DNA of 64,000 nucleotides from contig NZ_PTPX01000014.1 in the NCBI RefSeq assembly GCF_003260095.1, positions 124,001-188,000 of the forward strand. The letters run 5' to 3'. Under the pieces are notes generated by a model. The model worked only from the letters and a program-made list of their open reading frames with translations, was not told the DNA's origin and did no database searches. Every line of letters starts with the position of its first letter. Position 1 is the stretch's first letter. The position numbers and the translations under genes are program-made. Positions 1-16,515 of the stretch are shown here, in pieces. This stretch comes from Glaesserella australis. GTDB taxonomy: Bacteria > Pseudomonadota > Gammaproteobacteria > Enterobacterales > Pasteurellaceae.

Positions 1-1913
1 TTTTGGATACCGAAGCATTTATGGCGGGATTTGCTACTGCTGATAAAGCAAAACAGGCTGGCATACGCCCGAGTTTCCCTGATCTACATGAATTGTATCA
101 GTGCTATGAGCTTTATATGGCGGAGCTAGCGAAAAAGACAGATTTAGGGAGATTAGTCAATCAAGAACGTCAAGTGATATTACAACAATGTTTTAGTGCA
201 GCTGAGTTAGATAAATCGCTATTTAGCTTAACCGTGCCAACTGGCGGCGGTAAAACCTTAGCGAGTTTAGGGTTTGCCTTGAAGCATGCTCTGAAATTTC
301 ATAAAAAACGTATTATTTACGCCATTCCGTTTACTAGTATTATTGAACAAAACGCAGCCGTTTTTCGTAAGGTATTGGGGGATAACGTGGTGCTTGAACA
401 TCACAGTAATTTAGAAGTGAGTGAAAGTAACGAAACGACCAAAAATCGCTTAGCAACCGAAAACTGGGACGCTCCTTTGATTGTAACAACCAATGTACAA
501 TTGTTTGAAAGCCTGTTTGCCGCTCGCACTAGCCGTTGCCGTAAGATTCATAATATTGCCGATAGTGTAGTAATTTTAGACGAGTCCCAGCAACTCCCCC
601 GTGAATTTCAAAAGCCGATTACGGACATGATGCGTGTCTTGGCACAAGATTATGGCACGACTTTTGTGCTTTGCACCGCGACTCAACCTGAATTGGGTAA
701 GGAAATTGATGCCTTCGGACGCGTAGATATGGAAGGTTTAAATGATGTTTATGAAATTATTCAAGATAAAACTACGTTAGCAAAACGTTTGCAACGAGTA
801 CAAATCAACTTTCCTGAAGCGAATTCACCCAAACAAACATGGCAACAAATTGCTGCTGAAATCACAACACAACCGTGTGTGCTGGCAGTAGTGAATACAC
901 GGCGTCATGCACGTCAATTATTTGCTGAGTTACCTGATGATGGTATTAAGCTACATCTTTCTGCCAATATGTGTGCAGCGCATCGTGCTGAAGTCATCGC
1001 TTTAATAAGGCGTTATCTACATGAATATCATAATGGACACTTAAATCAACCGCTATGGGTGGTGAGTACCCAGTTAATTGAGGCGGGGGTAGATGTAGAT
1101 TTTCCGGTGGTATATCGTGCGATGGCGGGCTTGGATAGCATTATTCAGACGGCAGGCCGTTGTAATAGAGAGGGGAAATTACCTGACCTTGGTAAGGTGG
1201 TCGTGTTCCGGGCAGAACAAGGCGCGCCTAGCGGCAGTTTAAAACAAGGGCAGGATATTACTGAAGAAATGCTGGTAAAAGGATTATTAAGCGAACCACT
1301 ATTGCCTGAAACGTTTAGTGACTATTTTCGCCGATTTAGAGCTAAAGGCGCAGTGGATAAATACAATATCAGCGCAGATTTAACTGCTGAATGTTCGCAA
1401 CAAAACCCGTTGGCTTTTAAGTTTCGCACGGCTGCCGAGAAATTTCGTTTGATTGATAATAAAGGTGTGGCATTAATTGTTCCTTTTATACCCTTGGTTT
1501 GGCAGGAAGAAGGGAAAGAGAACAAGATAGTCGATACCACAAAGTTGGACGATTTTTTAAAGCAGCATTTAGATAATATCTCATTTGATAAATGGCAGGA
1601 AAAATTAAACAGCTTGCGTTATCCAAGTGCAGAACAAAACGAATTCTTACGAACCGATAAGCCTTCTTTGCCAGAACCTTTTGAAACTTGGTTTACTTAT
1701 TTGGAAAGTGATCCACTAAAACATAAATGGGTATATCGCAAATTACAACGTTATACGATTAGTGTATATGAACATGAACTAAAAAAATTGCCTGAAAAAG
1801 CGGTATTCTCAAGAGCAGGGTTATTGGTGCTGGATGTAGGTTATTACCGCGATATGTTGGGGGCAGATTTTGATGATGAAATCAGTCTTATGCCACAAGA
1901 ATCCGTATTGTAA
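1..1913 (+). CDS. cas3: CRISPR-associated helicase/nuclease Cas3 (type I-C), 5' end outside window
   Basis: Cas3 is the helicase-nuclease recruited by Cascade to unwind and degrade target DNA. The reading frame is open to the left window edge, so the N-terminal HD nuclease domain lies upstream and the apparent TTG start at base 3 is not real. Visible SF2 helicase motifs, in order: a Walker A loop TVPTGGGKT (about 80 residues in), motif II DESQ near base 575, TQLIEAGVDVDF near base 1070, and motif VI QTAGRCNREG near base 1150. The visible 636 residues are what would be expected once the HD domain is removed. It is the first gene of the I-C locus and is separated from cas5c by a 200-bp regulatory region. 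The family assignment is secure. Confidence 0.95.
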   Translation, partial: LDTEAFMAGFATADKAKQAGIRPSFPDLHELYQCYELYMAELAKKTDLGRLVNQERQVILQQCFSAAELDKSLFSLTVPTGGGKTLASLGFALKHALKFHKKRIIYAIPFTSIIEQNAAVFRKVLGDNVVLEHHSNLEVSESNETTKNRLATENWDAPLIVTTNVQLFESLFAARTSRCRKIHNIADSVVILDESQQLPREFQKPITDMMRVLAQDYGTTFVLCTATQPELGKEIDAFGRVDMEGLNDVYEIIQDKTTLAKRLQRVQINFPEANSPKQTWQQIAAEITTQPCVLAVVNTRRHARQLFAELPDDGIKLHLSANMCAAHRAEVIALIRRYLHEYHNGHLNQPLWVVSTQLIEAGVDVDFPVVYRAMAGLDSIIQTAGRCNREGKLPDLGKVVVFRAEQGAPSGSLKQGQDITEEMLVKGLLSEPLLPETFSDYFRRFRAKGAVDKYNISADLTAECSQQNPLAFKFRTAAEKFRLIDNKGVALIVPFIPLVWQEEGKENKIVDTTKLDDFLKQHLDNISFDKWQEKLNSLRYPSAEQNEFLRTDKPSLPEPFETWFTYLESDPLKHKWVYRKLQRYTISVYEHELKKLPEKAVFSRAGLLVLDVGYYRDMLGADFDDEISLMPQESVL

Positions 1914-1990
1914 ATAAAATGCCCCAAAAGGGGCATTTGGGCTGGTCAATATAGCACCATGGTTTCAACACACAGTCAGAGATGACTGAT
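1911..1990 (-). ncRNA. creR-like: CreR-like crRNA: degenerate CRISPR repeat + pseudo-spacer + terminator, predicted to repress the cas5c promoter
   Basis: Read on the minus strand, bases 1990 to 1962 form a single degenerate copy of the array repeat. It has a 6-bp stem (CAGTCA/TGACTG), a 4-nt loop and an 11-nt tag TGTGTTGAAAC, against TGAGTTGAAAC in the array (one difference). A 23-nt pseudo-spacer follows (1961-1939). Then comes a 9-bp stem with a TTTT loop and a T-rich tail (1938-1911), which is an intrinsic terminator only on the minus strand. The first 14 nt of the pseudo-spacer match the minus strand of the cas5c promoter (2093-2080) except at position 6, with TTC immediately 5' of the match. 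Known precedent: CreA/CreR RNAs guide Cascade to promoters using short seed matches. No near-consensus promoter is visible for this RNA; the upstream sequence is AT-rich. Expression is inferred. Confidence 0.8.
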
Positions 1991-2055
1991 TTTACTATTA
2001 TTAGTAAGTCTTATATTTTAACAAAAATTTGTCGAAATAAAAATTTCGTCAATCA

Positions 2056-2084
2056 TTGACAATACTGTTGGAGTTTTTTAATAT
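2056..2084 (+). promoter_or_regulatory. cas5c-cas8c-cas7c promoter
   Basis: A perfect TTGACA (2056-2061) and TAATAT (2079-2084) are separated by 17 bp, 30 bp upstream of the cas5c start. The strength of this promoter suggests it needs repression. The -10 element overlaps the predicted Cascade target described under the CreR-like RNA. Confidence 0.8.
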
Positions 2085-2096
2085 AGCTCCATGGAA
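2080..2096 (-). promoter_or_regulatory. Predicted Cascade self-target (protospacer with TTC PAM) over the cas5c -10 region
   Basis: On the minus strand TTC (2096-2094) is followed by CATGGAGCTATATT (2093-2080). The CreR-like pseudo-spacer begins CATGGTGCTATATT. The only mismatch is at spacer position 6, a base that type I Cascade flips out and does not pair. Beyond 14 nt the match is lost, which is the pattern expected for binding without cleavage. Confidence 0.75.
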
Positions 2097-2113
2097 ATCA
2101 TTAAGGAGGGTAT

Positions 2114-2758
2114 ATGAGTTTTATCATAGAAATTAGCGGCGATCTGGCTTGTTTCACCCGCCCAGAATTGAAGGTGGAGCGAGTTAGCTATCCTGTAATT
2201 ACACCTTCAGTCGCGCGTAATATCTTGATGGCTATTCTGTGGAAACCGGCTATTCGTTGGCGTGTTTTAAAGATAGAAATTTTGAAACCAATTCAATGGG
2301 TTAGTATTCGCCGCAATGAGGTCGGTATAAAAATGAGTAACCGTAGTCAAGGTATGTACATTGAAGATAACCGCCAACAACGGGCTTCTATGTTATTGCG
2401 TGATGTTGCCTACCGTATCCATGCTGACTTTGATATGACAAACGAAGCGGGTGAAGGAGATAATCGCACTAAATTTGTCGAAATGTTTAAACGCCGTGCC
2501 AGTAAAGGGCAATATTTTCATCAGCCGTATTTAGGTTGTCGTGAATTTCCTTGCCATTTTAGATTGCTTGAAAAAGCGGAAGACGGTTTGCCACGCGAAG
2601 ACATTACTCAAAATTTCGGCTTTATGCTCTATGACATGGATTACAGCAAATCTGCCCCGCACGATTCCAATAATGCCGAGCCGATGTTTTATGAGTGTAA
2701 AGCAGTTAATGGCGTAATTATAGTGCCGCCAGTCGATAGCGAGGAGGTGAAGCGATGA
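2114..2758 (+). CDS. cas5c: Type I-C CRISPR protein Cas5c (Cas5d)
   Basis: A RAMP-fold protein of 214 residues. In type I-C it replaces Cas6: it cuts pre-crRNA at the base of the repeat hairpin, leaving the 11-nt 5' tag, and then caps the complex. The start follows a strong AAGGAGGG ribosome site. The N-terminus (IEISGDLACFTRPELKVERVSYP region) and the C-terminal FYECKAVNGVI stretch look like the family, and the length is typical. The last four bases overlap the cas8c start (ATGA), so the two genes are translationally coupled. Its promoter is the predicted target of the CreR-like RNA. Confidence 0.93.
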   Translation: MSFIIEISGDLACFTRPELKVERVSYPVITPSVARNILMAILWKPAIRWRVLKIEILKPIQWVSIRRNEVGIKMSNRSQGMYIEDNRQQRASMLLRDVAYRIHADFDMTNEAGEGDNRTKFVEMFKRRASKGQYFHQPYLGCREFPCHFRLLEKAEDGLPREDITQNFGFMLYDMDYSKSAPHDSNNAEPMFYECKAVNGVIIVPPVDSEEVKR

Positions 2759-4563
2759 TTTTACAAGCATTGACGCATTATTATCAACGTAAATCAAATG
2801 CTGGGGGAGATGTTGCTCCTGAAGGGTTTGAATTTAAAGAACTTCCTTTTGTGATTGTGATTGATGAGCAGGGGCGGTTTATTGCCCTTGAAGATACACG
2901 AGAGCAAGTCGCTAAAAAGAAAATTGGACGTAAATTTTTGGTGCCTAAAGGTTTGGGGCGTAGTGGTGCTAAGTCCTATGAAGTGAGCAATATTTTGTGG
3001 GATCACTATGGCTATGTGCTGGGTGTCGCAAAAGAAGTAGAGAGCATTGCTAAAAAAACACCTGAGCAAATTGCTGATGAACAAACCAAAAATCAGATTT
3101 TGGCAGACAATCAACATCAAAGTTTTATTAAAAAAGTAGATGAATTGCTTCAAGCGCTTCCAAGCGATAAAGGCATTGTGGCTGTTAAAGCATTTTTGGC
3201 AAACACAGATGAGATTGTTAAGGTTACCCAGTCTGAAAATTGGTCTGAGTGCTTTAAAACCAAAGGGTGTAACTTAAGTTTTCGTTTGGTAAGCGAAGTG
3301 CGCGATTTAATCTGCCAGTCCAAAGCATTACAAACCTATCTGTCGGATAAAAAAGGCGATAAGTCGGAAAATAGCCAAGTAGGTATTTGTTTAGTAACAG
3401 GTAAAAAGACAAATATTGCTCGCTTGCACAATCCCGTCAAAGGTGTCAATGCTAAACCTGCGCCATTTGCTTCGGTAAATTTGGCTGCATTTGAGTCTTA
3501 TGATAAACAGCAAGGTTTTATTTTCCCTGTGGGCGAGCAGGCAATGTTTGAGTACACCACGGCCTTGAATATGCTCTTAGATAGCGACAATCGCTTTCGT
3601 ATTGGTGATGTGACAGCCGTGTGCTGGGCTGAAAAACCTACGCCGCTTGAGAGTAAGATGTCACTGATGATGAACGGGGGTGGTAAAGACAACCCAGATG
3701 CACATATTGAAGAAGTGAAATTGCTTTATAAAAGCCTATATAACGGCAAATATCAAGAGCCTAACGCCAAAGATAAATTTTATCTGCTTGGCTTGTCGCC
3801 TAATTCCGCTCGGATTGTGGTGCGATTTTGGCATGAAACCACGGTTGCAGAATTGTCGGAAAATATTGCCAAATGGTATGACGATTTACAAATAATTCGT
3901 GGTGAAAAATCGCTTTATCCTGAATTTATGCCATTACCACGTTTGTTGGGGAATCTAGTGCTTGACGGCAAATTGGATAATTTACCATCGGATTTGATTG
4001 CAACCGTGACACAAAGTGCCTTAAGCAACCAGCCCCTGCCAGTTAGCCTTCTGCAACTTGCTTTACGTCGTAATAAAGCTGAGCAAAAAATTACCTATGG
4101 ACGTGCTTGTTTAATTAAAGCCTATTTAAATCGTGCTGTCCGTACAGGTAGATTAAAAACTACAAAGGAGATTACCATGAGTTTAGATAGAGAAAGAAGT
4201 GACATTGGTTATGTTCTAGGGCGTTTATTTGCTGTTTTAGAAAAAGCGCAAAGCGAAGCCAATCCATCACTAAACGCCACCATTGGCGACCGCTATTTCG
4301 GTTCGGCAAGTAGCACACCGATTGCCGTGTTTGGCACTTTAATGCGTTTATCGCCCCATCATTTGAGTAAGCTAGAACATGAAGGTCGCGCTGTACATCT
4401 AAAATGGGAAATTGGACAAATTTTAGAGAAATGCCAAAAATTCCCCAGCCATCTTAATTTGGAGCAACAAGGTTTATTTGCCATCGGCTATTACCATGAA
4501 ACCCAATTTTTGTTTACCAAGGAAGCTTTAAAAACCCTTTTTAACCAAGCGAAATCTGCTTAA
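2755..4563 (+). CDS. cas8c: Type I-C Cascade large subunit Cas8c (Csd1)
   Basis: Large subunit of 602 residues, the usual Csd1 length. In type I-C it recognises the TTC-type PAM and recruits Cas3. The start overlaps the cas5c stop, and cas7c follows after 11 bp. The N-terminus ([12 protein letters not shown]) and the central [14 protein letters not shown] segment resemble Csd1 proteins. The 3' quarter contains an in-frame internal start with its own ribosome site that should make the small subunit Cas11c, listed separately. Confidence 0.93.
4177..4563 (+). CDS. cas11c: Internal in-frame ORF: Cascade small subunit Cas11c
   Basis: Type I-C systems lack a separate small-subunit gene; Cas11c is made from an internal start within cas8c. 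Here ATG at 4177 is in frame with cas8c (codon 475) and is preceded at 6-bp spacing by AAGGAG (4165-4170), a ribosome site that would be odd by chance inside a gene. The product is 128 residues beginning [15 protein letters not shown], close to the size known for Cas11c. It would line the belly of Cascade and stabilise the R-loop. The inference rests on family knowledge plus the visible ribosome site. Confidence 0.78.
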
Positions 4564-4574
4564 GGAGCAATAAA

Positions 4575-5426
4575 ATGACTATTGAAAAACGTTATGACTT
4601 TGTCTTTTTGTTTGATGTACAAGATGGTAACCCTAACGGTGACCCCGACGCAGGAAACTTGCCACGCATTGATCCCGAAACGGGCATGGGCTTGGTAACT
4701 GATGTTTGCTTAAAACGCAAAGTACGTAATTTTGTACAAATGACCCAAAGCCCTGAAACACACGATATTTTTATTCGTGAAAAAGGTATTTTAAATAACC
4801 TAATTGATGACTCCCACGAACAAGATAGTGTTAAAAATAAAGAAAAAGGTGAGAAAACTGAAGCGGCTCGCCAATATATGTGCGCTCGTTATTATGATGT
4901 TCGTACCTTTGGTGCAGTTATGACCACCGGCAAAAATGCAGGTCAAGTGCGTGGTCCAGTTCAACTTACTTTTTCACGCTCTATCGATCCGATTATTACA
5001 TTAGAGCATTCTATTACTCGTATGGCAGTAACTAATGAAAAAGATGCTAGTGAAACGGGGGATAATCGTACCATGGGGCGCAAATTCACCGTTCCTTATG
5101 GTTTGTATCGTTGCCACGGCTTCATTTCCGCTCACTTTGCCAAACAAACCGGTTTTTCCGATGAAGATTTGGAGTTGTTCTGGCAAGCTTTGATCAATAT
5201 GTTCGATCACGATCATTCCGCAGCCCGCGGGCAAATGAATGCACGTGGTTTGTATGTATTTGAACATAGTAATAGCTTGGGTGACGCTCCTGCTGATAGC
5301 CTGTTTAGACGTATTTTTGTTTCTAAAAAAGAAGGCGTAGATTCTGCCCGCAGTTTTGATGACTATAGTGTAGCGGTGGACGATAAAGATTTGGGAGCAA
5401 CAAAACTATATCGTAAATTAGGTTAA
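4575..5426 (+). CDS. cas7c: Type I-C Cascade backbone Cas7c (Csd2)
   Basis: Backbone subunit of 283 residues that polymerises along the crRNA spacer. The family hallmark near the N-terminus is clear ([19 protein letters not shown], followed by [12 protein letters not shown]), as is the central [16 protein letters not shown] stretch. The start has AAGGAG upstream. It is the third gene of the cas5-cas8-cas7 unit. A 59-bp gap with an uptake word (ACCGCTTGT) separates it from cas4. Confidence 0.95.
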
Positions 5427-5485
5427 TCAAGTGCTTATTTGCAAAATTTTCAGCAAATCAAACCGCTTGTAAGAGAGTGTCATCC

Positions 5486-6091
5486 ATGCGTATGATTTCG
5501 CTCTCCGCCTTACAGCACTATGCCTTTTGCCCACGCCAATGCGCGTTAATTCATAACGAACAGGTGTGGGCAGAAAACTATTTGACTGCTCAAGGTAGGG
5601 CGTTGCACGAGCGAGTGGACAGTGGCGAGCCTGAAACTCGCAAGGGCGTTCGCTTTGAGCGTAGTGTTCACGTTGCTGCCGAGCAACTTGGGCTAAGTGG
5701 GGTGCTGGATATGGTGGAGCATGACCTAAAAACAGGCGAGTTAAAACCTGTGGAATATAAGCGTGGCAAGCCTAAGCCTGAACCCTTTGATGAAATCCAA
5801 CTGTGTGCTCAAGCCTTGTGCTTAGAAGAGATGACAGGGCAGACCATCAACGAAGGAGCATTATGGTATATGCAAACCCGCCACCGCCTGCCTGTGGTGT
5901 TTTCAGCTGAGTTGCGAAAACGTACGCTAGATGTTATCAAAAGCGTACGAGCGTTACTTGACAGCGGACAAACTCCACCCCCTGAGTATGCCAAACGCTG
6001 TAAGGCGTGTTCCTTGATTGAGCTTTGCCAACCGAAGTTGTTGGGGAAGGATAGGTCAGTGGGGTATGTGGCGGGGTTGTTTGGGGGGTAA
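5486..6091 (+). CDS. cas4: CRISPR-associated exonuclease Cas4 (Cas4/Dna2 family)
   Basis: Cas4 trims prespacers and selects those with the correct PAM, working with Cas1-Cas2. The product is about 201 residues. Cysteines for an iron-sulfur cluster are visible near the N-terminus (YAFCPRQC) and C-terminus (CKACSLIELC), with RecB-type nuclease residues between them (GVLDMVEHD, PVEYKRGKPK). I chose ATG 5486, which has AAGAGAG at good spacing; a GTG at 5477 is also in frame. In most I-C loci cas4 is directly followed by cas1; here an OLD-type nuclease gene separates them. Confidence 0.93.
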   Translation: MRMISLSALQHYAFCPRQCALIHNEQVWAENYLTAQGRALHERVDSGEPETRKGVRFERSVHVAAEQLGLSGVLDMVEHDLKTGELKPVEYKRGKPKPEPFDEIQLCAQALCLEEMTGQTINEGALWYMQTRHRLPVVFSAELRKRTLDVIKSVRALLDSGQTPPPEYAKRCKACSLIELCQPKLLGKDRSVGYVAGLFGG

Positions 6092-6138: not shown

Positions 6139-7898
6139 ATGAAGATTAGAACAATTGAAATTAGAAACTGGCGTTCTATTAAAGAACTCAAAATTTCAGC
6201 GCAGGATTTAATGATTATTATCGGTCAAAATAATCAGGTAAATCTAATTTACTTTCTTCTATTTTATTCTTTTTTGGTGAAATTAAGCATCAAGATTTAG
6301 ATTTTTCACAAGGAGCGCAAGAGCTTTTTGTGGAAATAGAATTTGCTGAACTGGATGAACAAGACAAAAAAACATTTGAAAAATATTTAACCCAACAAGA
6401 AACACTTAGAGTTAGAAAAACTGCTTATTTAAACGGTAGTTTTGAATACAAAGGTTGGGTGCAAAATTGTTCAGAAGACTATTTAAAAGAAGAGAATGCA
6501 GGGAGTTATACAAATAGAGAAACGGCTAATAGCTTACCTTTCTATCGGCATTTACCAACAACAGGAAGATTAACTAAACAAAATATTATTGATGCGCAAC
6601 AAAAATATATTCAAGAAAATTTCTCTAACCTTTCGTTTAGTTATGAGTTAGAAGCAACTAATTTTATGGGGGCAAAATCTGTTGCCAAAGGAATTTTTGG
6701 AGATGTTTATTTCTTACCGGCAATAAAGAATGCTGCTGATGATTTTACATCAAAAGATACTAGTATTTTTGGGAAACTATTGGGAGAGGTTGTAGAAGCC
6801 ATGTCGCAACATAATTCTGACTGGCAGGGAACGAAACAACAATTAACAAATTTATTTTCTAAATTCAGTAAATATATTGATGGTGTAGAAAATACCAATC
6901 GGCCGGAGCAACTATCTAACTTGGAAGATGAGTTATCAAAAGAATTATCATCTTGGAATGCGCATTTTGATATTGAATTGAACGCTCCTGATATTGATAC
7001 AGTTTTGAAATCAAACGCTTCTGTATGGATTAACGATGGAACGAGAACGGATATTGCACGAAAAGGTCATGGTTTGCAACGTGCTGTAACGATTGCACTT
7101 ATTCAGTTAATTGCAAAACGCCAATCGCAAGCTACAAATAATACTGAAACTACTAATCGGGTAGCATCTAAATCTCGTTATTTTATTTTTGAAGAGCCTG
7201 AATTGTATTTACATCCACAGGCTCAAAGATCATTATTTGATAGCTTTATAAATTTATCTGAAACTAGCAGTCAAGTTATTTTATGTACACATTCTAGTAA
7301 TCTTATCAATATAGATAAATATAAATCTATTTATATTGTTAAAAAGGAAAATGAACAAGCTGGTAGCAAGGTAACTCAATGTGAAGAAGATTTATTTGAT
7401 GGAAACCAAAAAAATGAATGGAATTTGTCCTATTGGATTAATCCTGATAGAGGAGAGTTGTTTTTTGCTGAAAAAGTAATTTTAGTAGAAGGGCAAACTG
7501 ACAAAGTTATTATTTCTGCATTGGCAGATAAATTAGGTGTTTTTAAATATAGTTATACTATTATTGATTGTGGTTCAAAACAGAATATCCCTTTGTATAT
7601 TAGATTGTTAAACAAATTTGGCATTCCATATGTTGCCGTATATGATAAAGATCATCAAGAACATAAACAATCAAAACCACAAGCAATCGAAGCTGCTGAT
7701 TCTGCTACAAAAGCAATTGTAGATGAAGTTATTGAAGGATTGGGTATAGCAGTTGAACTAGTCAATGATATAGAAGAAGAGCTTGGTTATACGAGCGATA
7801 CATCAGGGAAACCATTTAAAGCATTACAACATATTAAATCGGATGATTTCAAATTTTCAGAAAGCTTTTCTGAAAAGATTAGAAAAATTTATGAATAG
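6139..7898 (+). pseudogene. OLD-family ATPase/TOPRIM endonuclease, frameshifted at its P-loop
   Basis: The gene begins at ATG 6139 behind AAGGA and reads MKIRTIEIRNWRSIKEL, then GQNNQ, then shifts frame at GG 6237-6238. One extra G there would restore GQNNQGKSNLLSSILFF, the expected Walker A, and join the start to the downstream frame, which runs to 7898 from about 6240. The rest is a complete OLD-type protein: a Walker B/D-loop region with FEEPELYLHP, an H-loop LCTHSSN, then a C-terminal TOPRIM nuclease (VILVEGQTDKVI, later VYDKDHQ). OLD proteins act in phage defence. A GTG at 6330 could restart translation but would give a product without the P-loop. It sits inside the cas operon between cas4 and cas1. 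A sequencing error is possible but cannot be judged here. Confidence 0.8.
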
Positions 7899-7983: not shown

Positions 7984-8997
7984 ATGCGTAAACTTCAAAA
8001 CACACTCTATATCACCACCCAAGGCAGTTATTTACATAAAGAGCGTGAAACCTTGGTGGTGGAGCAAGACCGTAAGAAGGTAGCACAATTGCCTGTGCAT
8101 TCTATTGGGCATATTTTTTGTTTTGGTAATGTGTTGGTGTCGCCGTTTTTGATGGGCTTTTGTGGTGAAAATAATGTCAATTTGGCATTTTTTACTGAAA
8201 ATGGGCGGTTTTTGGGGCGGCTGCAAGGGCGACAAAGTGGCAATGTGCTACTAAGACGCGCTCAATATCGATTATCCGAACAAAATCCTGTGCCGATTGC
8301 TCGCCATATCATCGCTGCCAAAATCCAAGCATCAAAACGAGTACTCCAGCGACGACTGCGCAATCACGGTGAGCAAGCAGAAGTTGAACAAGCAATTAAT
8401 GCCTTAAATATCAGCTTAAATCAGCTTAAGCGGGCAGATAATTTGGACGTGATTCGTGGGATTGAAGGCGAAGCTGCGGCGCATTATTTTAGTGTATTTG
8501 GGTATTTGCTCAGCGAAGGTTGTGGCTTTACGTTTTCAGGGCGAAATCGTCGCCCGCCACGAGATGAAATCAATGCTTTGTTATCACTGTTATACAGCAT
8601 TCTTGGCAAGGATATCAGCGGGGCTTTGCAAGGTGTAGGGCTTGATCCGCAAGTGGGCTTTTTGCACGCTGACCGCCCGGGGCGCGACAGTTTGGCGCAG
8701 GATATTTTGGAAGAATTTCGTGCGTGGTGGGTGGATAGAATGGTGCTGTCGCTGATTAACCGTGGGCAAATCAAACTGCAAGATTTTACCACTGAAGCCA
8801 GTGGTGCAGTCAATCTCAAACCTGAAACCCGCAAGCTACTTTTCCAAACACTTCAAGCCAAAAAACAAGAGAAAATTATCCACCCATTTTTACAAGAAGA
8901 AGTGGAAATCGGTTTACTGCCATATATCCAAGCGATGTTGTTAGCCCGCCATTTACGTGGTGACTTGGCGGAGTATCCCCCATTTTTGATGAAATAA
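7984..8997 (+). CDS. cas1: CRISPR integrase Cas1 (type I-C)
   Basis: Catalytic subunit of the spacer integrase, 337 residues, normal for I-C Cas1. The metal-binding residues are in recognisable context: the Glu in GIEGEAAAHYF, the His in GFLHADRPGRDSLAQDILEE and the acidic residues just after it. The 85-bp region upstream contains TTGACG and AT-rich sequence but no convincing paired -10, so it may depend on readthrough across the OLD gene or on a weak local promoter. cas2 follows after 82 bp, which include an uptake word GACAAGCGGTCAG. Confidence 0.96.
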   Translation: MRKLQNTLYITTQGSYLHKERETLVVEQDRKKVAQLPVHSIGHIFCFGNVLVSPFLMGFCGENNVNLAFFTENGRFLGRLQGRQSGNVLLRRAQYRLSEQNPVPIARHIIAAKIQASKRVLQRRLRNHGEQAEVEQAINALNISLNQLKRADNLDVIRGIEGEAAAHYFSVFGYLLSEGCGFTFSGRNRRPPRDEINALLSLLYSILGKDISGALQGVGLDPQVGFLHADRPGRDSLAQDILEEFRAWWVDRMVLSLINRGQIKLQDFTTEASGAVNLKPETRKLLFQTLQAKKQEKIIHPFLQEEVEIGLLPYIQAMLLARHLRGDLAEYPPFLMK

Positions 8998-9079: not shown

Positions 9080-9373
9080 ATGTTGATGTTAGTTACCTAT
9101 GATATTTCTTTTGATGACCCCGAAGGGCAAGCTAGACTGCGTCGTATCGCTAAACATTGTCTTGATTATGGCGTGCGAGCGCAGTATTCGGTGTTTGAAT
9201 GTGATGTTACCCCAGACCAGTGGGTCAAGCTCAAACAAAAATTATTAGAAACTTACAATCCTGAAAGCGATAGCTTGCGATTCTACCATTTGGGCAGCAA
9301 GTGGCGAAATAAGGTCGAACACCACGGCGCAAAACCTGCGGTGGATGTGTTTAAAGATGTGCTTATTATCTAA
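9080..9373 (+). CDS. cas2: CRISPR integrase subunit Cas2 (type I-C)
   Basis: Structural subunit of the Cas1-Cas2 integrase, 97 residues, beginning MLMLVTYDISFDD with the ferredoxin-like fold and the conserved Asp after the first strand. The RYGVRAQYSVFEC-type stretch is present (YGVRAQYSVFECDV). The start is preceded by AAGGAGAG. It is the last cas gene and points into the CRISPR leader. Confidence 0.96.
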   Translation: MLMLVTYDISFDDPEGQARLRRIAKHCLDYGVRAQYSVFECDVTPDQWVKLKQKLLETYNPESDSLRFYHLGSKWRNKVEHHGAKPAVDVFKDVLII

Positions 9374-9549: not shown

Positions 9550-12500
9550 GTCGCTCCCCACGCGGGAGCGTGAGTTGAAACACATCACCGCCGGATACCC
9601 AGATCCCATTTTGCGGGTCGCTCCCCACGCGGGAGCGTGAGTTGAAACCCATTTTTTACCACCGGTCAAAAAGGGGGGTGACTTGTCGCTCCCCACGCGG
9701 GAGCGTGAGTTGAAACTTCAAAAGACAAGCAACCTGCGGTGTAAGTGTTAGTCGCTCCCCACGCGGGAGCGTGAGTTGAAACGCCTGCCACGTCAAAACG
9801 CCTGCGGTTATGGCTATGTCGCTCCCCACGCGGGAGCGTGAGTTGAAACTTATGTTTTTAAATTAAAATAGGAGAAAAAAAAATGGTCGCTCCCCACGCG
9901 GGAGCGTGAGTTGAAACACCGCAGATAAAGCGTTGAAGTGGGTGGTGGGTAGTCGCTCCCCACGCGGGAGCGTGAGTTGAAACTGGATTGCTACGCCTTA
10001 CGATATGGGCGATCCACCGTCGCTCCCCACGCGGGAGCGTGAGTTGAAACACAGTGGGGTAATTTGTCGTAAACCTGATGGTGAAGGTCGCTCCCCACGC
10101 GGGAGCGTGAGTTGAAACCACGCCACCCAATTCTTTGAGCAGCAAATTGGTCGTCGCTCCCCACGCGGGAGCGTGAGTTGAAACGGGTAGGTCGCTTTCT
10201 TCAAAAGACAAGCAACCTGTCGCTCCCCACGCGGGAGCGTGAGTTGAAACTGCTAACGCCCTGCGGTTGTTAGACTAAAAAAGCCAGTCGCTCCCCACGC
10301 GGGAGCGTGAGTTGAAACATAATGGTGTCCGTTCTTCTATTTTGACCGCTGAAAGTCGCTCCCCACGCGGGAGCGTGAGTTGAAACAAATAAAACTAGTA
10401 TTAAACCTGAAGAAAAGAAATCGTCGCTCCCCACGCGGGAGCGTGAGTTGAAACTATAAGTGAGTTACTACCATGAAGGGCTTTTAGTAGTCGCTCCCCA
10501 CGCGGGAGCGTGAGTTGAAACTATCGACTTTTCATTTCTAGAGTTAAATTCTCTGTCGCTCCCCACGCGGGAGCGTGAGTTGAAACATCTTCTGAAGCAT
10601 ATTTCGGATCAGCTAATAATGGTCGCTCCCCACGCGGGAGCGTGAGTTGAAACAATTATGACTAGACAAAGATTGAAAATCATCCAATGTCGCTCCCCAC
10701 GCGGGAGCGTGAGTTGAAACTGTTGTCGTTCAGCCTCCATCGCATCATAAACCGTGTCGCTCCCCACGCGGGAGCGTGAGTTGAAACTGCAACTTATACA
10801 TAGCTCTAGCCACGTTTTCAGAGTCGCTCCCCACGCGGGAGCGTGAGTTGAAACAGTATCGTCAGGAACACCAGGAGCACAGACCTCCGCGTCGCTCCCC
10901 ACGCGGGAGCGTGAGTTGAAACAAGGTGATGAGCAATGCTATTTTGCTCAGACAGCTCGTCGCTCCCCACGCGGGAGCGTGAGTTGAAACTCCACCTCGG
11001 TTTCTGCATTTAGCATTTTATCCCACGTCGCTCCCCACGCGGGAGCGTGAGTTGAAACTTTATAATGCAATCACTTTCTAGGAAGAACTTTGTGTCGCTC
11101 CCCACGCGGGAGCGTGAGTTGAAACAATGCGAATAGCGTCACGAGCCTTTGTTTTTGGCGGGTCGCTCCCCACGCGGGAGCGTGAGTTGAAACTAGGGAA
11201 CACTAGGAAGAACTTTGTAACAATAACTGTCGCTCCCCACGCGGGAGCGTGAGTTGAAACTATTCCGAAGTCAAAGCTTTATTTGCTACTGATGAGTCGC
11301 TCCCCACGCGGGAGCGTGAGTTGAAACTATCTAGCCAATAGGCTATAAGGATCAATATATGTCGCTCCCCACGCGGGAGCGTGAGTTGAAACCCGCTCGC
11401 TCGCCACGCCACGAAACCACGCAATCACGTCGCTCCCCACGCGGGAGCGTGAGTTGAAACTAGGCGGTTTATCGTTGCTTGCATTGTTGCAGTAGTCGCT
11501 CCCCACGCGGGAGCGTGAGTTGAAACCCTACAATGTACTCACTTTCTAGGGAATACTAGGAGTCGCTCCCCACGCGGGAGCGTGAGTTGAAACTGTTTTT
11601 CGTACCAAGTGCGACAAAATCCACAAAAGTCGCTCCCCACGCGGGAGCGTGAGTTGAAACTTATAATGTGATCACTTTCTAGGGAACACTAGGAGTCGCT
11701 CCCCACGCGGGAGCGTGAGTTGAAACACTGGGTAAAGCCGGTGCAAGCCGTGACCCATCGTCGCTCCCCACGCGGGAGCGTGAGTTGAAACATTTTTATC
11801 AATGTTCGACGGTGTGAGGAATACAAGTCGCTCCCCACGCGGGAGCGTGAGTTGAAACTGAAAAAGGAAAGTATCCTTACACTTGGGCTATGTGTCGCTC
11901 CCCACGCGGGAGCGTGAGTTGAAACAAGGAAATTATACTCGTTAATTCGGCGACTAATCCGTCGCTCCCCACGCGGGAGCGTGAGTTGAAACCAACAATC
12001 TCAATCACTCGCTCCACGTCATCGACGTCGCTCCCCACGCGGGAGCGTGAGTTGAAACAGATCTAAGATTATCTAGATCTTGCATTACATTAGGTCGCTC
12101 CCCACGCGGGAGCGTGAGTTGAAACTAGGGAACACTAGAAAGCAATCATTATCTAGTAACGTCGCTCCCCACGCGGGAGCGTGAGTTGAAACAAAAGAAA
12201 TAGTATCTGTTGTCTATGGTGATCAGGCGTCGCTCCCCACGCGGGAGCGTGAGTTGAAACACCAATAATGTCCCACGTTCAAAGGCACTAACCTGTCGCT
12301 CCCCACGCGGGAGCGTGAGTTGAAACGTCTCTTTGAGTTAGTTTAATATCTCGTGGTGGCGTCGCTCCCCACGCGGGAGCGTGAGTTGAAACCACATTAT
12401 TAACCACGATGGCATAAAAGTTGTATGTCGCTCCCCACGCGGGAGCGTGAGTTGAAACCGTCATAAAACCCTGCAAGTTGTGTACCATCAACAGGTCGCT

Positions 12501-15500
12501 CCCCACGCGGGAGCGTGAGTTGAAACAATAAACACAGGTATTACGCTTACGAAGAATAACAGTCGCTCCCCACGCGGGAGCGTGAGTTGAAACACTCAAA
12601 CGGAAGTGCTTTTAACTGAAATGAATGGTCGCTCCCCACGCGGGAGCGTGAGTTGAAACTTTAATGAAGCTGATGACGCATTAACAAAAGCGTGGGTCGC
12701 TCCCCACGCGGGAGCGTGAGTTGAAACTGTACGCTGTGTGACAGGGTTATATACCTGAGCGTCGCTCCCCACGCGGGAGCGTGAGTTGAAACCACGCTAA
12801 ACGTAAGCTCATCATCAGGATCCATCGTCGCTCCCCACGCGGGAGCGTGAGTTGAAACTAGGGAACACTAGAAAGGATAATCTAACAGTAACGTCGCTCC
12901 CCACGCGGGAGCGTGAGTTGAAACGCTACAAAGTGATTGCGTGGATTTTGTGATTTAGTGAGTCGCTCCCCACGCGGGAGCGTGAGTTGAAACACTTTTT
13001 CGCCGTATATTTCAACGGCGATCTCTTTGTCGCTCCCCACGCGGGAGCGTGAGTTGAAACTTTATAATACAATCAAGTTTTAGGGAATACTAAAGTCGCT
13101 CCCCACGCGGGAGCGTGAGTTGAAACCAATCTTTGCTATTTAGCTCTTTCATTGAAAAAGTGTCGCTCCCCACGCGGGAGCGTGAGTTGAAACCCATCGT
13201 GGGCGAGAATCAATAGATGATGAGCGAGAGTCGCTCCCCACGCGGGAGCGTGAGTTGAAACAGGATTGCGAAGTTTTGCAGAATTAACACCGCTGTCGCT
13301 CCCCACGCGGGAGCGTGAGTTGAAACCATGGGTCCGATATAACCAATAAATAACAGTTTTGTCGCTCCCCACGCGGGAGCGTGAGTTGAAACATCACGAG
13401 CTAAATTCAGCTCACCAGCAAGGCTCGTCGCTCCCCACGCGGGAGCGTGAGTTGAAACCTTTGTTGGCTAGAAAAAGAAGATGGCAAGATGGAGTCGCTC
13501 CCCACGCGGGAGCGTGAGTTGAAACTATTTATTATTTAGTCTCTCTTGAGCAATGTCGAGTCGCTCCCCACGCGGGAGCGTGAGTTGAAACCTTTGCGTG
13601 TTTGTGGTGAATACCAAAGGCGAGTGTCGCTCCCCACGCGGGAGCGTGAGTTGAAACATTTGAACCCATTTAGCGAAATACTTTGGCGTTGTCGCTCCCC
13701 ACGCGGGAGCGTGAGTTGAAACGTATGGTTCGTGCCACCTAATAATCTTATGATTAGGTCGCTCCCCACGCGGGAGCGTGAGTTGAAACTACCGATGACT
13801 TACTTAAACTAAAAGCCCAAGTCGTCGCTCCCCACGCGGGAGCGTGAGTTGAAACTACGCCCATACGGTTAGCACTCTCGTCTAGCAATGGTCGCTCCCC
13901 ACGCGGGAGCGTGAGTTGAAACTCGAATGGGCGAAAGAAGCTGACGAAGCAGATGTTGTCGCTCCCCACGCGGGAGCGTGAGTTGAAACCAACCGAGCGT
14001 AGCACGCAAAAGCCGTTATAACCCGTCGCTCCCCACGCGGGAGCGTGAGTTGAAACCCTAAATTCGCTAAACTAGGCGATACGGCTTTTGTCGCTCCCCA
14101 CGCGGGAGCGTGAGTTGAAACGTTTATGACGGCTTAAAAACAATGCGTAAACGTAGTCGCTCCCCACGCGGGAGCGTGAGTTGAAACTTCATAGTTTTAA
14201 CCTTATAAATTTTCTTGTACGTCGCTCCCCACGCGGGAGCGTGAGTTGAAACAAGGCATTGCTAAACGTATGGAAAAAGCGAAAGAGTCGCTCCCCACGC
14301 GGGAGCGTGAGTTGAAACAGGTTTGATGTTATCAAATGCACAATTATCTATTAGTCGCTCCCCACGCGGGAGCGTGAGTTGAAACTTTCTCACGACCTAA
14401 AGCAATCACATCTTGCGTTGGTCGCTCCCCACGCGGGAGCGTGAGTTGAAACGTTGCAGATCGCCCATCACTAGCAAGAATGTACAGGTCGCTCCCCACG
14501 CGGGAGCGTGAGTTGAAACTTATTATTAGGTAAAACCAATAATATATTTAGTGCGTCGCTCCCCACGCGGGAGCGTGAGTTGAAACGATTGAATAGACAC
14601 CGCCCAACGCTTTTACAAGTTGTCGCTCCCCACGCGGGAGCGTGAGTTGAAACCGATAAGGCGTTGTTTGTTTAAAAGCTCGTATGCGTCGCTCCCCACG
14701 CGGGAGCGTGAGTTGAAACATCATCAGGTTTAGCCCCTTTAGTTGGAATAGTTAGTCGCTCCCCACGCGGGAGCGTGAGTTGAAACTACACTTCTAAAGC
14801 GTTGGAATGAATATAGAGGAGTCGCTCCCCACGCGGGAGCGTGAGTTGAAACTCTTAAACGCTCTCTATCAAAAAGGCGTTTCTTGGTCGCTCCCCACGC
14901 GGGAGCGTGAGTTGAAACATATAAGCACGAACGGCTTTATCCATTTCGATGGCGTCGCTCCCCACGCGGGAGCGTGAGTTGAAACATCTTTTAGAGAGTG
15001 GTAAAAATGGCATTAAGTGGTCGCTCCCCACGCGGGAGCGTGAGTTGAAACCCTGCTCTCAAAAAGCAATCCACAACGGTTATCTCAGTCGCTCCCCACG
15101 CGGGAGCGTGAGTTGAAACAATAAAAGGAAACCCTATGTACAACAAAATAATCAGTCGCTCCCCACGCGGGAGCGTGAGTTGAAACCGCCTTTACCACTT
15201 GGATAAAGCGAATTCGCAAGGTCGCTCCCCACGCGGGAGCGTGAGTTGAAACATCAATGTCTGCACCTGTTTCTGCGCTTAAACCTGTTGCTCCCCACGC
15301 GGGAGCGTGAGTTGAAACCGCTCAGCCACGGCGTCCGTGTCAATCCATTTGTCGTCGCTCCCCACGCGGGAGCGTGAGTTGAAACACTAAAAAACACTAA
15401 AAACAAAACCATAAAAAATAGTCGCTCCCCACGCGGGAGCGTGAGTTGAAACCAGCGCAAACTTGCGAAGGAAATCCCCTACGGCGGTCGCTCCCCACGC

Positions 15501-16515
15501 GGGAGCGTGAGTTGAAACAAAACTGGGTATTTGAAGAAGTCCTACCGCAAATCGTCGCTCCCCACGCGGGAGCGTGAGTTGAAACGATTTGCGTAATCTT
15601 TTCAGTTTTGGATGCATCATGTCGCTCCCCACGCGGGAGCGTGAGTTGAAACTTGGTAAAGTTGGTACATTTGCTCGCTATTGTGAGTCGCTCCCTTCAC
15701 GGGAGCGTGAGTTGAAACTCATTTATGTTTTATCCTAAGTATTTTGATAAATGTCGCTCCCTTCACGGGAGCGTGAGTTGAAACGGTATATCAGGTACAG
15801 GCAAATCACGTTTTGTGGTCGCTCCCTTCACGGGAGCGTGAGTTGAAACCATAAACACAAAATAATTCATCAACAAAACGCCCCGTCGCTCCCTTCACGG
15901 GAGCGTGAGTTGAAACATTGTAGGGCATAACGGGATTGGGGTGATTTTGGGGTCGCTCCCTTCACGGGAGCGTGAGTTGAAACAAGCCATAAACGCTTCG
16001 CTTCGCGGTAGCTGTGCTCGTCGCTCCCTTCACGGGAGCGTGAGTTGAAACCAACTGCTGACGAATTTCAAGGGGTGTGACGTTGGTCGCTCCCCACTCG
16101 GGAGCGTGAGTTGAAACGTTTGAGTTCAGATATTTCTTTGTCTGTTATTTTGTCGCTCCCCACGCGGGAGCGCGAGTTGAAACTGATTAAGTCAATAAAG
16201 ACCATAGATTAGTTCCCGGTCGCTCCCTTCACGGGAGCGTGAGTTGAAACACCAATACGCATCACAAAATCATCAACACTGGCGGTCGCTCCCTTCACGG
16301 GAGCGTGAGTTGAAACACTATTTGCAACAGGGGTTGGATCTTGCTCATTATGTCGCTCCCTTCACGGGAGCGCGAGTTGAAACCAACAGCTTTACTATTG
16401 GCTCGCTTTCAAGGGCTGTCGCTCTCCACACGGGTGCGTGAGTTGAAACGCTCAAAATAACTATTTCTGCCCAAAGCTAATGCGTTGCTTCCTACGAGAG
16501 AGCGTAAATTGAAAC
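9550..16515 (+). CRISPR. Type I-C CRISPR array, about 105 repeats of 32 bp with 33-37 bp spacers
   Basis: Repeats start GTCGCTCC, form a 7-bp stem (CGCTCCC/GGGAGCG) and end in the 11-nt tag TGAGTTGAAAC, the expected I-C 5' handle. I counted 105 by eye with a period of 66-68 bp. Repeats 1-92 (to about 15650) carry loop CACGC and are invariant except at 15287 (GTTG for GTCG). From 15687 on most carry TTCAC instead; 16086 has CACTC, 16152 and 16352 have GCGAG for GTGAG, and 16418 and 16484 are strongly degenerate. This decay marks the leader-distal, oldest end. Several spacers are related to each other (see findings). Reading frames across the array, such as VSTHAPAWGAT repeats on the minus strand, are artefacts. 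Confidence 0.98.

What the first reader, a model, noticed from the sequence alone, without database searches (positions are those of the whole stretch)
1911..2100. Crc-like self-regulating RNA: a lone degenerate repeat whose pseudo-spacer targets the cas5c promoter (CreR type)
Seen: between cas3 and cas5c, a minus-strand repeat-like hairpin ends in TGTGTTGAAAC (array tag TGAGTTGAAAC). A 23-nt pseudo-spacer follows, then a terminator that works only on that strand. The pseudo-spacer start CATGGTGCTATATT equals the cas5c promoter strand CATGGAGCTATATT except at position 6, and TTC lies directly 5' of the target. The target overlaps the -10 of a near-perfect promoter. Known: CreA/CreR RNAs recruit Cascade with short seed matches to repress toxin or cas promoters, type I-C uses TTC, and position 6 is unpaired. 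Inference: the locus senses Cascade/crRNA abundance (and anti-CRISPR loss) by autorepression. I do not know of a described case in Pasteurellaceae I-C.
Basis: partly seen in the sequence, partly recalled or inferred. Interest (0 to 1): 0.95.

Follow-up and report, generated by a model that had tools for sequence, protein, structure and literature searches.

The report
CRISPR system's built-in RNA brake
Beside its type I-C CRISPR genes this bacterium carries a small stand-alone CRISPR-like RNA gene whose guide matches the promoter of those same genes, so it likely lets the defence complex turn down its own production, and four related loci (three in other genera, one in an uncultured bacterium's draft genome) keep the guide and the promoter matched although both sequences have changed.

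Summary
On the minus strand between cas3 and cas5c lie a degenerate repeat hairpin (1988-1973), an 11-nt handle TGTGTTGAAAC (1972-1962), a 23-nt guide (1961-1939) and a terminator. The guide matches the cas5c promoter at 13 of 14 positions, missing only position 6, directly beside TTC; this seed plus TTC is unique in the 2.3 Mb genome. New evidence: four relatives (Necropsobacter, Aggregatibacter, a Moraxella-labelled MAG, Pelistega) have the same layout with different seeds, and guide and promoter match at 50 of 50 positions 1-5 and 7-11 over the five loci. Three further relatives lack guide gene and intergenic space alike. In 89 cas5c-upstream regions, 13 hold such a pair beside TTC, against 2 region hits for 59 other trinucleotides. 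Of ten regions with one mismatch in positions 1-11, eight have it at position 6, which Cascade flips out. This is best read as a CreR-type autorepressor of a type I-C system. Reviews give CreR for I-B, I-E and V-A; my capped literature listings showed no I-C case, but the founding paper was not readable here. Transcription, processing and repression are untested.

The parts
1..1913 (+). cas3 (3' part; the gene starts 618 nt before the window)
   Evidence: NCBIfam TIGR01587 above cut-off; 843-aa ORF in the genome
1917..1938 (-). intrinsic terminator of the creR-like RNA, predicted 3' end (AAATGCCCC-TTTT-GGGGCATTT, then TATTT)
   Evidence: flagged on the minus strand only
1939..1961 (-). pseudo-spacer (guide), 23 nt; positions 1-14 = 1961-1948
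   Evidence: sequence; matches the cas5c promoter 13 of 14
1962..1972 (-). 11-nt handle TGTGTTGAAAC, the predicted crRNA-like 5' tag
   Evidence: TGAGTTGAAAC in this array, TGTGTTGAAAC in repeats of the Aggregatibacter locus L035
1973..1988 (-). degenerate repeat hairpin (6-bp stem, 4-nt loop), predicted Cas5c processing site at its 3' base
1989..2024 (-). possible promoter/leader of the creR-like gene (weak: TTGTTA-16-AATAAT, 9 of 12; TAAAAT just upstream)
   Evidence: number found not above shuffles
2056..2084 (+). predicted cas5c promoter TTGACA-17-TAATAT
   Evidence: 10 of 12
2080..2093 (-). target of the guide (positions 1-14 = 2093-2080), overlapping the -10
2094..2096 (-). TTC PAM
2114..2758 (+). 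cas5c, first gene of the predicted repressed operon
   Evidence: TIGR01876
2755..9373 (+). genes behind cas5c, predicted to be one operon: cas8c 2755-4563, cas7 4575-5426, cas4 5477-6091, an ATPase-like ORF 6330-7898, cas1 7984-8997, cas2 9080-9373
   Evidence: NCBIfam above cut-off for the cas genes; the ATPase-like ORF has only a weak match below cut-off
9550..16316 (+). CRISPR array, 100 matching repeats, spacers mostly 33-37 nt, source of competing crRNAs

Best explanation
Window 1911-2096 holds a lone degenerate CRISPR repeat and a 23-nt guide that matches the cas5c promoter beside a TTC at 13 of 14 positions, and it is predicted to be a CreR-type gene whose RNA leads the type I-C Cascade to repress its own operon. 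Shown by sequence: the repeat-handle-guide-terminator layout, the TTC-flanked target over the predicted -10, its uniqueness in the genome, and matched change of guide and target in four relatives with mismatches concentrated at position 6. Inferred: a minus-strand RNA is made, Cas5c cuts at the base of the hairpin leaving the TGTGTTGAAAC handle, the terminator hairpin serves as 3' end, Cascade binds the promoter through the 14-nt region and blocks RNA polymerase, and the short R-loop does not recruit Cas3. Free Cascade (few crRNAs, no anti-CRISPR) would then shut the operon down, while Cascade occupied by the roughly 100-repeat array's crRNAs or blocked by an anti-CRISPR would release it. cas3, upstream, lies outside the predicted repressed unit.
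For: Layout. Unique seed+TTC in the genome. Relatives L002/L031 Necropsobacter, L005/L035 Aggregatibacter, L033 Moraxella-labelled MAG and L036 Pelistega have handle, guide and a downstream hairpin in the same place. Guides and targets of the five loci: 50 of 50 matches at positions 1-5 and 7-11, 8 of these 10 positions vary among loci, 1 of 120 pairings (the true one) reaches the sum. A consensus-like promoter at the target in 4 of 5 (window 10, L031 12, L033 10, L036 11 of 12), with positions 1-14 overlapping the -10 in three and ending one base short of it in L036. Skip-one test in 89 regions: skipping position 6 adds 8 regions, skipping any other position adds 0 or 1. Positions not selected on: 12 matches in 5 of 13, 13 in 11 of 13, 14 in 9 of 13. 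TTC specificity: 13 regions in 9,607 handle-TTC pairs against 2 region hits in 392,349 pairs with 59 other trinucleotides; ten scrambled handles with TTC gave no full match in 60 regions, and three matches at 9 of 10. A scan of whole loci gives one full match in each of the five, the creR itself. The cas3-cas5c gap is 193-345 nt in the five and 23-38 nt in the three close relatives without the guide. Precedent: CreA represses through an 11-bp seed, and 21-24-nt spacers repress without interference in I-B (PMC10989794, passages); I-C Cascade on a TTC target over a -10 represses (PMC10865793, passages).
Against: No expression data. Only one repeat is present, whereas most creA genes have two (PMC8501985, passages). 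The promoter of the RNA is weak by consensus and not above shuffles. A minus-strand terminator behind the guide is flagged only in the window and L036; in L031 the hairpin is flagged on the + strand only, in L033 and L035 not at all. On the + strand the window's repeat hairpin itself scores as a terminator and could serve cas3. In I-E, seed-only Cascade binding left transcription unchanged, and promoter repression falls sharply with 6 PAM-distal mismatches (PMC5904413, passages); in I-B a 16-nt spacer still left 67% and a 20-nt one 44-69% of the transcript (PMC10989794, passages). So a 14-nt match might repress weakly. The five loci share ancestry, so the position-6 mismatch in four of them is not four independent events; the more independent support is L008, L041, L058 and L076. 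In L005 the scan found no promoter at the target, and the L002 hairpin is imperfect. Full matches also arise by chance or from arrays in larger stretches: L040 has one between an array-like repeat and a site 5.9 kb away. Five Pasteurellaceae genomes (L007, L010-L013) show a similar TTC-flanked motif before cas5c, but no partner guide was found in them.
Confidence: 0.9

Rival explanations
1. The two 14-mers are paired operators for a DNA-binding protein (looping repressor), and the hairpin is just a terminator, for example of cas3.
For: Two near-identical same-strand sites 132 bp apart at a promoter; the hairpin scores as terminator-like on the + strand.
Against: An operator would keep one consensus across loci; here the sequence changes at 8 of 10 positions and only the match between the two copies is kept. 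One copy always follows a GAAAC handle and the other TTC, with the mismatch at position 6.
Confidence: 0.03
2. A functionless leftover: an array fragment or self-targeting spacer stranded in the locus.
For: The repeat is degenerate and single.
Against: Same position, order and co-varying seed in the window and four relatives at 64-89% Cas5c identity; 0 of 99 array intervals has such a match to the cas locus.
Confidence: 0.03
3. A CreA antitoxin guide that represses a hidden toxin rather than cas5c.
For: Other I-C loci have a small ORF near the target.
Against: Here only 17 nt separate the PAM from the cas5c start; the only ORF that I see there is an 8-codon one beginning inside the target, and L002 has no ATG at that place.
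Confidence: 0.03
4. A phage-derived repeat mimic (Racr-like RNA anti-CRISPR) that ended up in the locus.
For: Racrs are solitary repeats (PMC10651486, abstract in search listing).
Against: No similar phage record at blastn sensitivity, position inside the cas locus, and a guide matched to the cas promoter in five loci.
Confidence: 0.01

Closest known systems
CreR, cas-regulating RNA (Liu et al. 2023, Cell Host Microbe; known here only through passages of reviews PMC13131331, PMC12737573, PMC12948488)
   Same: crRNA-like gene, partial match to a cas promoter, effector-dependent autorepression (here predicted)
   Different: PMC13131331 names I-B, I-E and V-A; this is I-C, with one repeat and a terminator hairpin in place of a second repeat, antisense between cas3 and cas5c, target on the effector operon without cas3
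CreTA (creA/creT), types I-B (PMC9458426, passages) and I-F (PMC10097628, abstract in search listing)
   Same: Degenerate repeat, short guide, TTC PAM (I-B), about 11-nt seed on a promoter
   Different: No toxin gene seen under the target here
scaRNA with Cas9 (PMC9458426, passages); long-form tracrRNA autoregulation of Cas9 (recalled)
   Same: A native CRISPR effector guided by a short match to a promoter or 5' region
   Different: Type II, Cas9
Type I-C CRISPRi with the Neisseria lactamica Cascade (PMC10865793, passages)
   Same: I-C Cascade on a TTC protospacer over a -10 represses transcription
   Different: Engineered, 35-nt spacer

Membership tests
CreR | crRNA-like gene with degenerate repeat outside the array, in the cas locus | tested here: met
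CreR | Partial complementarity to a cas promoter, next to the PAM | tested here: met
   13 of 14 beside TTC over the predicted -10
CreR | Guide-target match kept among relatives | tested here: met
   50 of 50 matches in five loci, 1 of 120 pairings
CreR | No toxin gene coupled to the guide | tested here: met
   17 nt between PAM and cas5c start, only an 8-codon ORF there, by eye
CreR | RNA made, processed and loaded on the effector | not testable with these tools
   hairpin and handle present; needs small-RNA data
CreR | Effector-dependent repression relieved by crRNA excess or anti-CRISPR | not testable with these tools
   needs reporter assays
CreTA / CrePA | Target lies on the promoter of a toxin gene | tested here: not met
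   the target is the predicted cas5c promoter
CreTA | Two divergent repeats flanking the guide in most creA genes | tested here: not met
   one repeat, then a terminator. A one-repeat creA exists in H. hispanica (PMC8501985, passages)

The most novel reading that the evidence does not exclude
Type I-C systems broadly carry built-in Cascade guides: autorepressing CreR genes in at least two layouts (antisense before cas5c as here; in the cas5c leader as in L018), and CreA-like guides over small ORFs, several of them hydrophobic, placed between cas3 and cas5c. I-C would thus be a new subtype for both self-regulation and toxin-guarded addiction, with the natural guide-target pairs themselves recording the sixth-position flip of Cascade.
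Probability: 0.6. Interest if true: 0.78.

Novelty: new member of a known kind. Interest (0 to 1): 0.62.

Why it matters
[quoted passage not shown] The natural seed-target pairs also give a comparative read-out of which guide positions an I-C Cascade reads, and a simple two-plasmid test.

Tried and rejected
Rejected: protein operator pair, functionless remnant, toxin guard, Racr (see rivals). Rfam gave only a chance-level rncO match (14 bits, gathering score 43). No similar DNA in phage records. Plasmid I-C relatives (51 records) are all under 60% identical and were not followed. A trans-located guide for the L007/L010-L013 group was sought in 5 of 5 genomes and not found. One search read some loci unflipped; one search repeated them in the right orientation. 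(60 regions) was superseded (89 regions) and, which repeats the count with corrected anchors because two loci (L074, L085) had short upstream flanks; the hits did not change. The 89 regions are the window, 36 of the 57 other places (21 weak ones, E 6e-13 or worse, were not taken), 7 of the 12 loci, 23 of the 24 loci and the 22. Dropped as duplicates or a second piece of one gene: L031, L032, L034, L035, L037, L066. Not counted among the 13: L009, L019, L025, L045 and L055, which match at 9 of 10 beside TTC. In one search the four AAN trinucleotides gave many hits because the handle itself ends in AAN (self-match); they are excluded from the control.

Full report
What is there. Between cas3 (stop at 1913) and cas5c (ATG at 2114) lie 200 nt. 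Read on the minus strand they hold a hairpin CAGTCA-TCTC-TGACTG (1988-1973), the 11-nt handle TGTGTTGAAAC (1972-1962), a 23-nt guide (1961-1939) and a terminator. The array downstream (100 matching repeats, 9550-16316, spacers mostly 33-37 nt) has the main repeat GTCGCTCCCCACGCGGGAGCGTGAGTTGAAAC, so the lone copy keeps the handle (10 of 11) and has another stem. The genes are a type I-C set: cas3, cas5c, cas8c, cas7, cas4, cas1, cas2 by NCBIfam.

The match. The guide equals the minus strand of the cas5c promoter at 13 of 14 positions, with the miss at position 6, and TTC lies directly 5' of the target; at positions 15-20 only 2 of 6 match. TTC plus the seed occurs once exactly in the 2.3 Mb genome; the guide gene itself has AAC in place of TTC. 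0 of 20,000 shuffles of the intergenic region reach TTC plus 10 of 10 at positions 1-5 and 7-11. The target overlaps the -10 of TTGACA-17-TAATAT.

Relatives. Cas5c relatives were collected from 140 family, 369 class and 398 phylum genomes (the samples overlap in part) and from genome contigs (12 loci). Of the eight loci with Cas5c at 64-100% identity and readable upstream DNA (window, L002, L003, L004, L005, L033, L036, L038), five have the repeat-handle-guide-hairpin block and a 193-345 nt gap, and three (Actinobacillus vicugnae, Aggregatibacter kilianii, Neisseria polysaccharea) have neither the block nor room for it, gap 23-38 nt. A ninth, L006/L037, is a partial cas5c at a contig end whose upstream DNA looks rearranged by eye, and I left it out. 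Guide gene and internal promoter thus seem to come and go as one unit. In the five, guide and target differ between loci at 8 of the 10 positions 1-5 and 7-11, yet match each other in 50 of 50 cells; only the true pairing among 120 reaches this. Position 6 matches in 1 of 5 and position 12 in 2 of 5. A consensus-like promoter lies at the target in four; positions 1-14 overlap its -10 in three and end one base short of it in Pelistega. In Aggregatibacter the scan finds none. By eye, the stem next to the handle changes by compensation in four (CAGTCA/TGACTG, CAGCCGCC/GGCGGCTG, CAACC/GGTTG, CATCC/GGATG) and is imperfect in Necropsobacter. A hairpin follows the guide in all five folds, but the terminator scan flags it on the minus strand only in the window and Pelistega.

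A test free of the choice of position 6. In 89 distinct cas5c-upstream regions I counted handle-TTC pairs that match at all but one of positions 1-11. Five regions match at all 11. Leaving out position 6 adds 8 regions; leaving out position 3 or 10 adds one each; any other adds none. With 10 single-mismatch regions, 8 or more at one given position has a binomial chance of 2e-7 if positions were equal and regions independent; the four type-A regions among them are related, so the true figure is less extreme. Position 12, also not selected on, matches in 5 of 13 against 11 of 13 at position 13. The flip of every sixth guide nucleotide in Cascade is described for I-E in PMC5904413 (passages), which also reports some contribution of position 6 to first binding. 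With TTC there are 13 regions in 9,607 pairs; with 59 other trinucleotides 2 region hits in 392,349 pairs, both for GTT, in the look-alike loci L019 and L025. Ten scrambled handles with TTC gave no full match in 60 regions and three at 9 of 10. In whole loci the scan gave one full match in each of the five, one each in L040 (array-like repeat, target 5.9 kb away, probably background), L041 and L042, and none in L032, L034, L038 and L039.

How it would work (inferred). The minus-strand RNA ends at the terminator; Cas5c (Cas5d), observed to process pre-crRNA in the type I-C host Mannheimia succiniciproducens according to PMC11127173 (passages), a Pasteurellaceae by my own knowledge, cuts at the stem base. 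A terminator hairpin can stand in for a second repeat in E. coli crRNAs (PMC5904413, passages). The short guide and 14-nt match fit repression without cleavage: in I-B, CreA works through an 11-bp seed, and spacers of 21-24 nt repressed to about 8-29% while interference and, with rare weak exceptions, priming were lost (PMC10989794, passages). The guides from handle to stem are 23-29 nt in the five loci by my reading, shorter than most of the 33-37 nt array spacers. Against this, a 16-nt spacer left 67% and a 20-nt one 44-69% of the transcript in that study, and in I-E seed-only binding was silent for transcription (PMC5904413); natural strength is open.

Other I-C loci. Of the eight further regions with a full match, L018 has the guide in the cas5c leader and the target over the -35 of the apparent promoter of that leader, a second autorepressing layout; in the other seven (L008, L041, L042, L043, L052, L058, L076) a small ORF lies near the target, several hydrophobic, which looks like the CreTA/CrePA layout. 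This was read by eye and not tested further.

Novelty. Reviews give CreR for I-B, I-E and V-A (PMC13131331, passages) or 'Type I and Type V-A' (PMC12737573, passages). The listings of searches showed no title or abstract start on an I-C or Pasteurellaceae CreR; most listings were capped at 15-20 of more papers, and subscription journals are mostly not held. A 2026 survey of Haemophilus CRISPR systems describes the I-C gene order and has no occurrence of 'promoter', 'degenerate' or 'solitary' (PMC13016550, passages). The founding paper is not held, so an I-C prediction in it cannot be excluded. I file this as a new member of a known kind.

Noticed in passing
L008, L041, L042, L043, L045, L052, L055, L058, L076 upstream of cas5c: Cre-like guides whose TTC-flanked target lies near the promoter or start of a small ORF (several small hydrophobic proteins, by eye) between cas3 and cas5c: a CreTA/CrePA-like layout in type I-C. 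L045 and L055 match at 9 of 10 only.
   Followed up: partly
L018, -173 to -91 before cas5c: Second autorepressing layout in a Pasteurellaceae I-C clade: guide in the cas5c leader on the + strand, target over the -35 of the apparent promoter of that leader.
   Followed up: partly
window 6139-7898: ATPase-like gene (weak MAD3 match below cut-off) between cas4 and cas1; the reading frame of its N-terminal part appears interrupted near 6240 (read by eye).
   Followed up: no
window 11017-13200, array: Several array spacers resemble each other (22-29 matching bases, shared CACTTTCTAGG or TAGGGAACACTAG stretches), as if taken repeatedly from one repeated or variable element.
   Followed up: no
L007, L010-L013 before cas5c: TTCTATGGTTATGCTATG-like motif at the cas5c start resembles the targets, but no partner guide was found in 5 of 5 genomes.
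   Followed up: partly
L036 just before cas5c (Pelistega): By eye, a short ORF with its own ribosome site lies between the targeted promoter and cas5c and overlaps the cas5c start.
   Followed up: no
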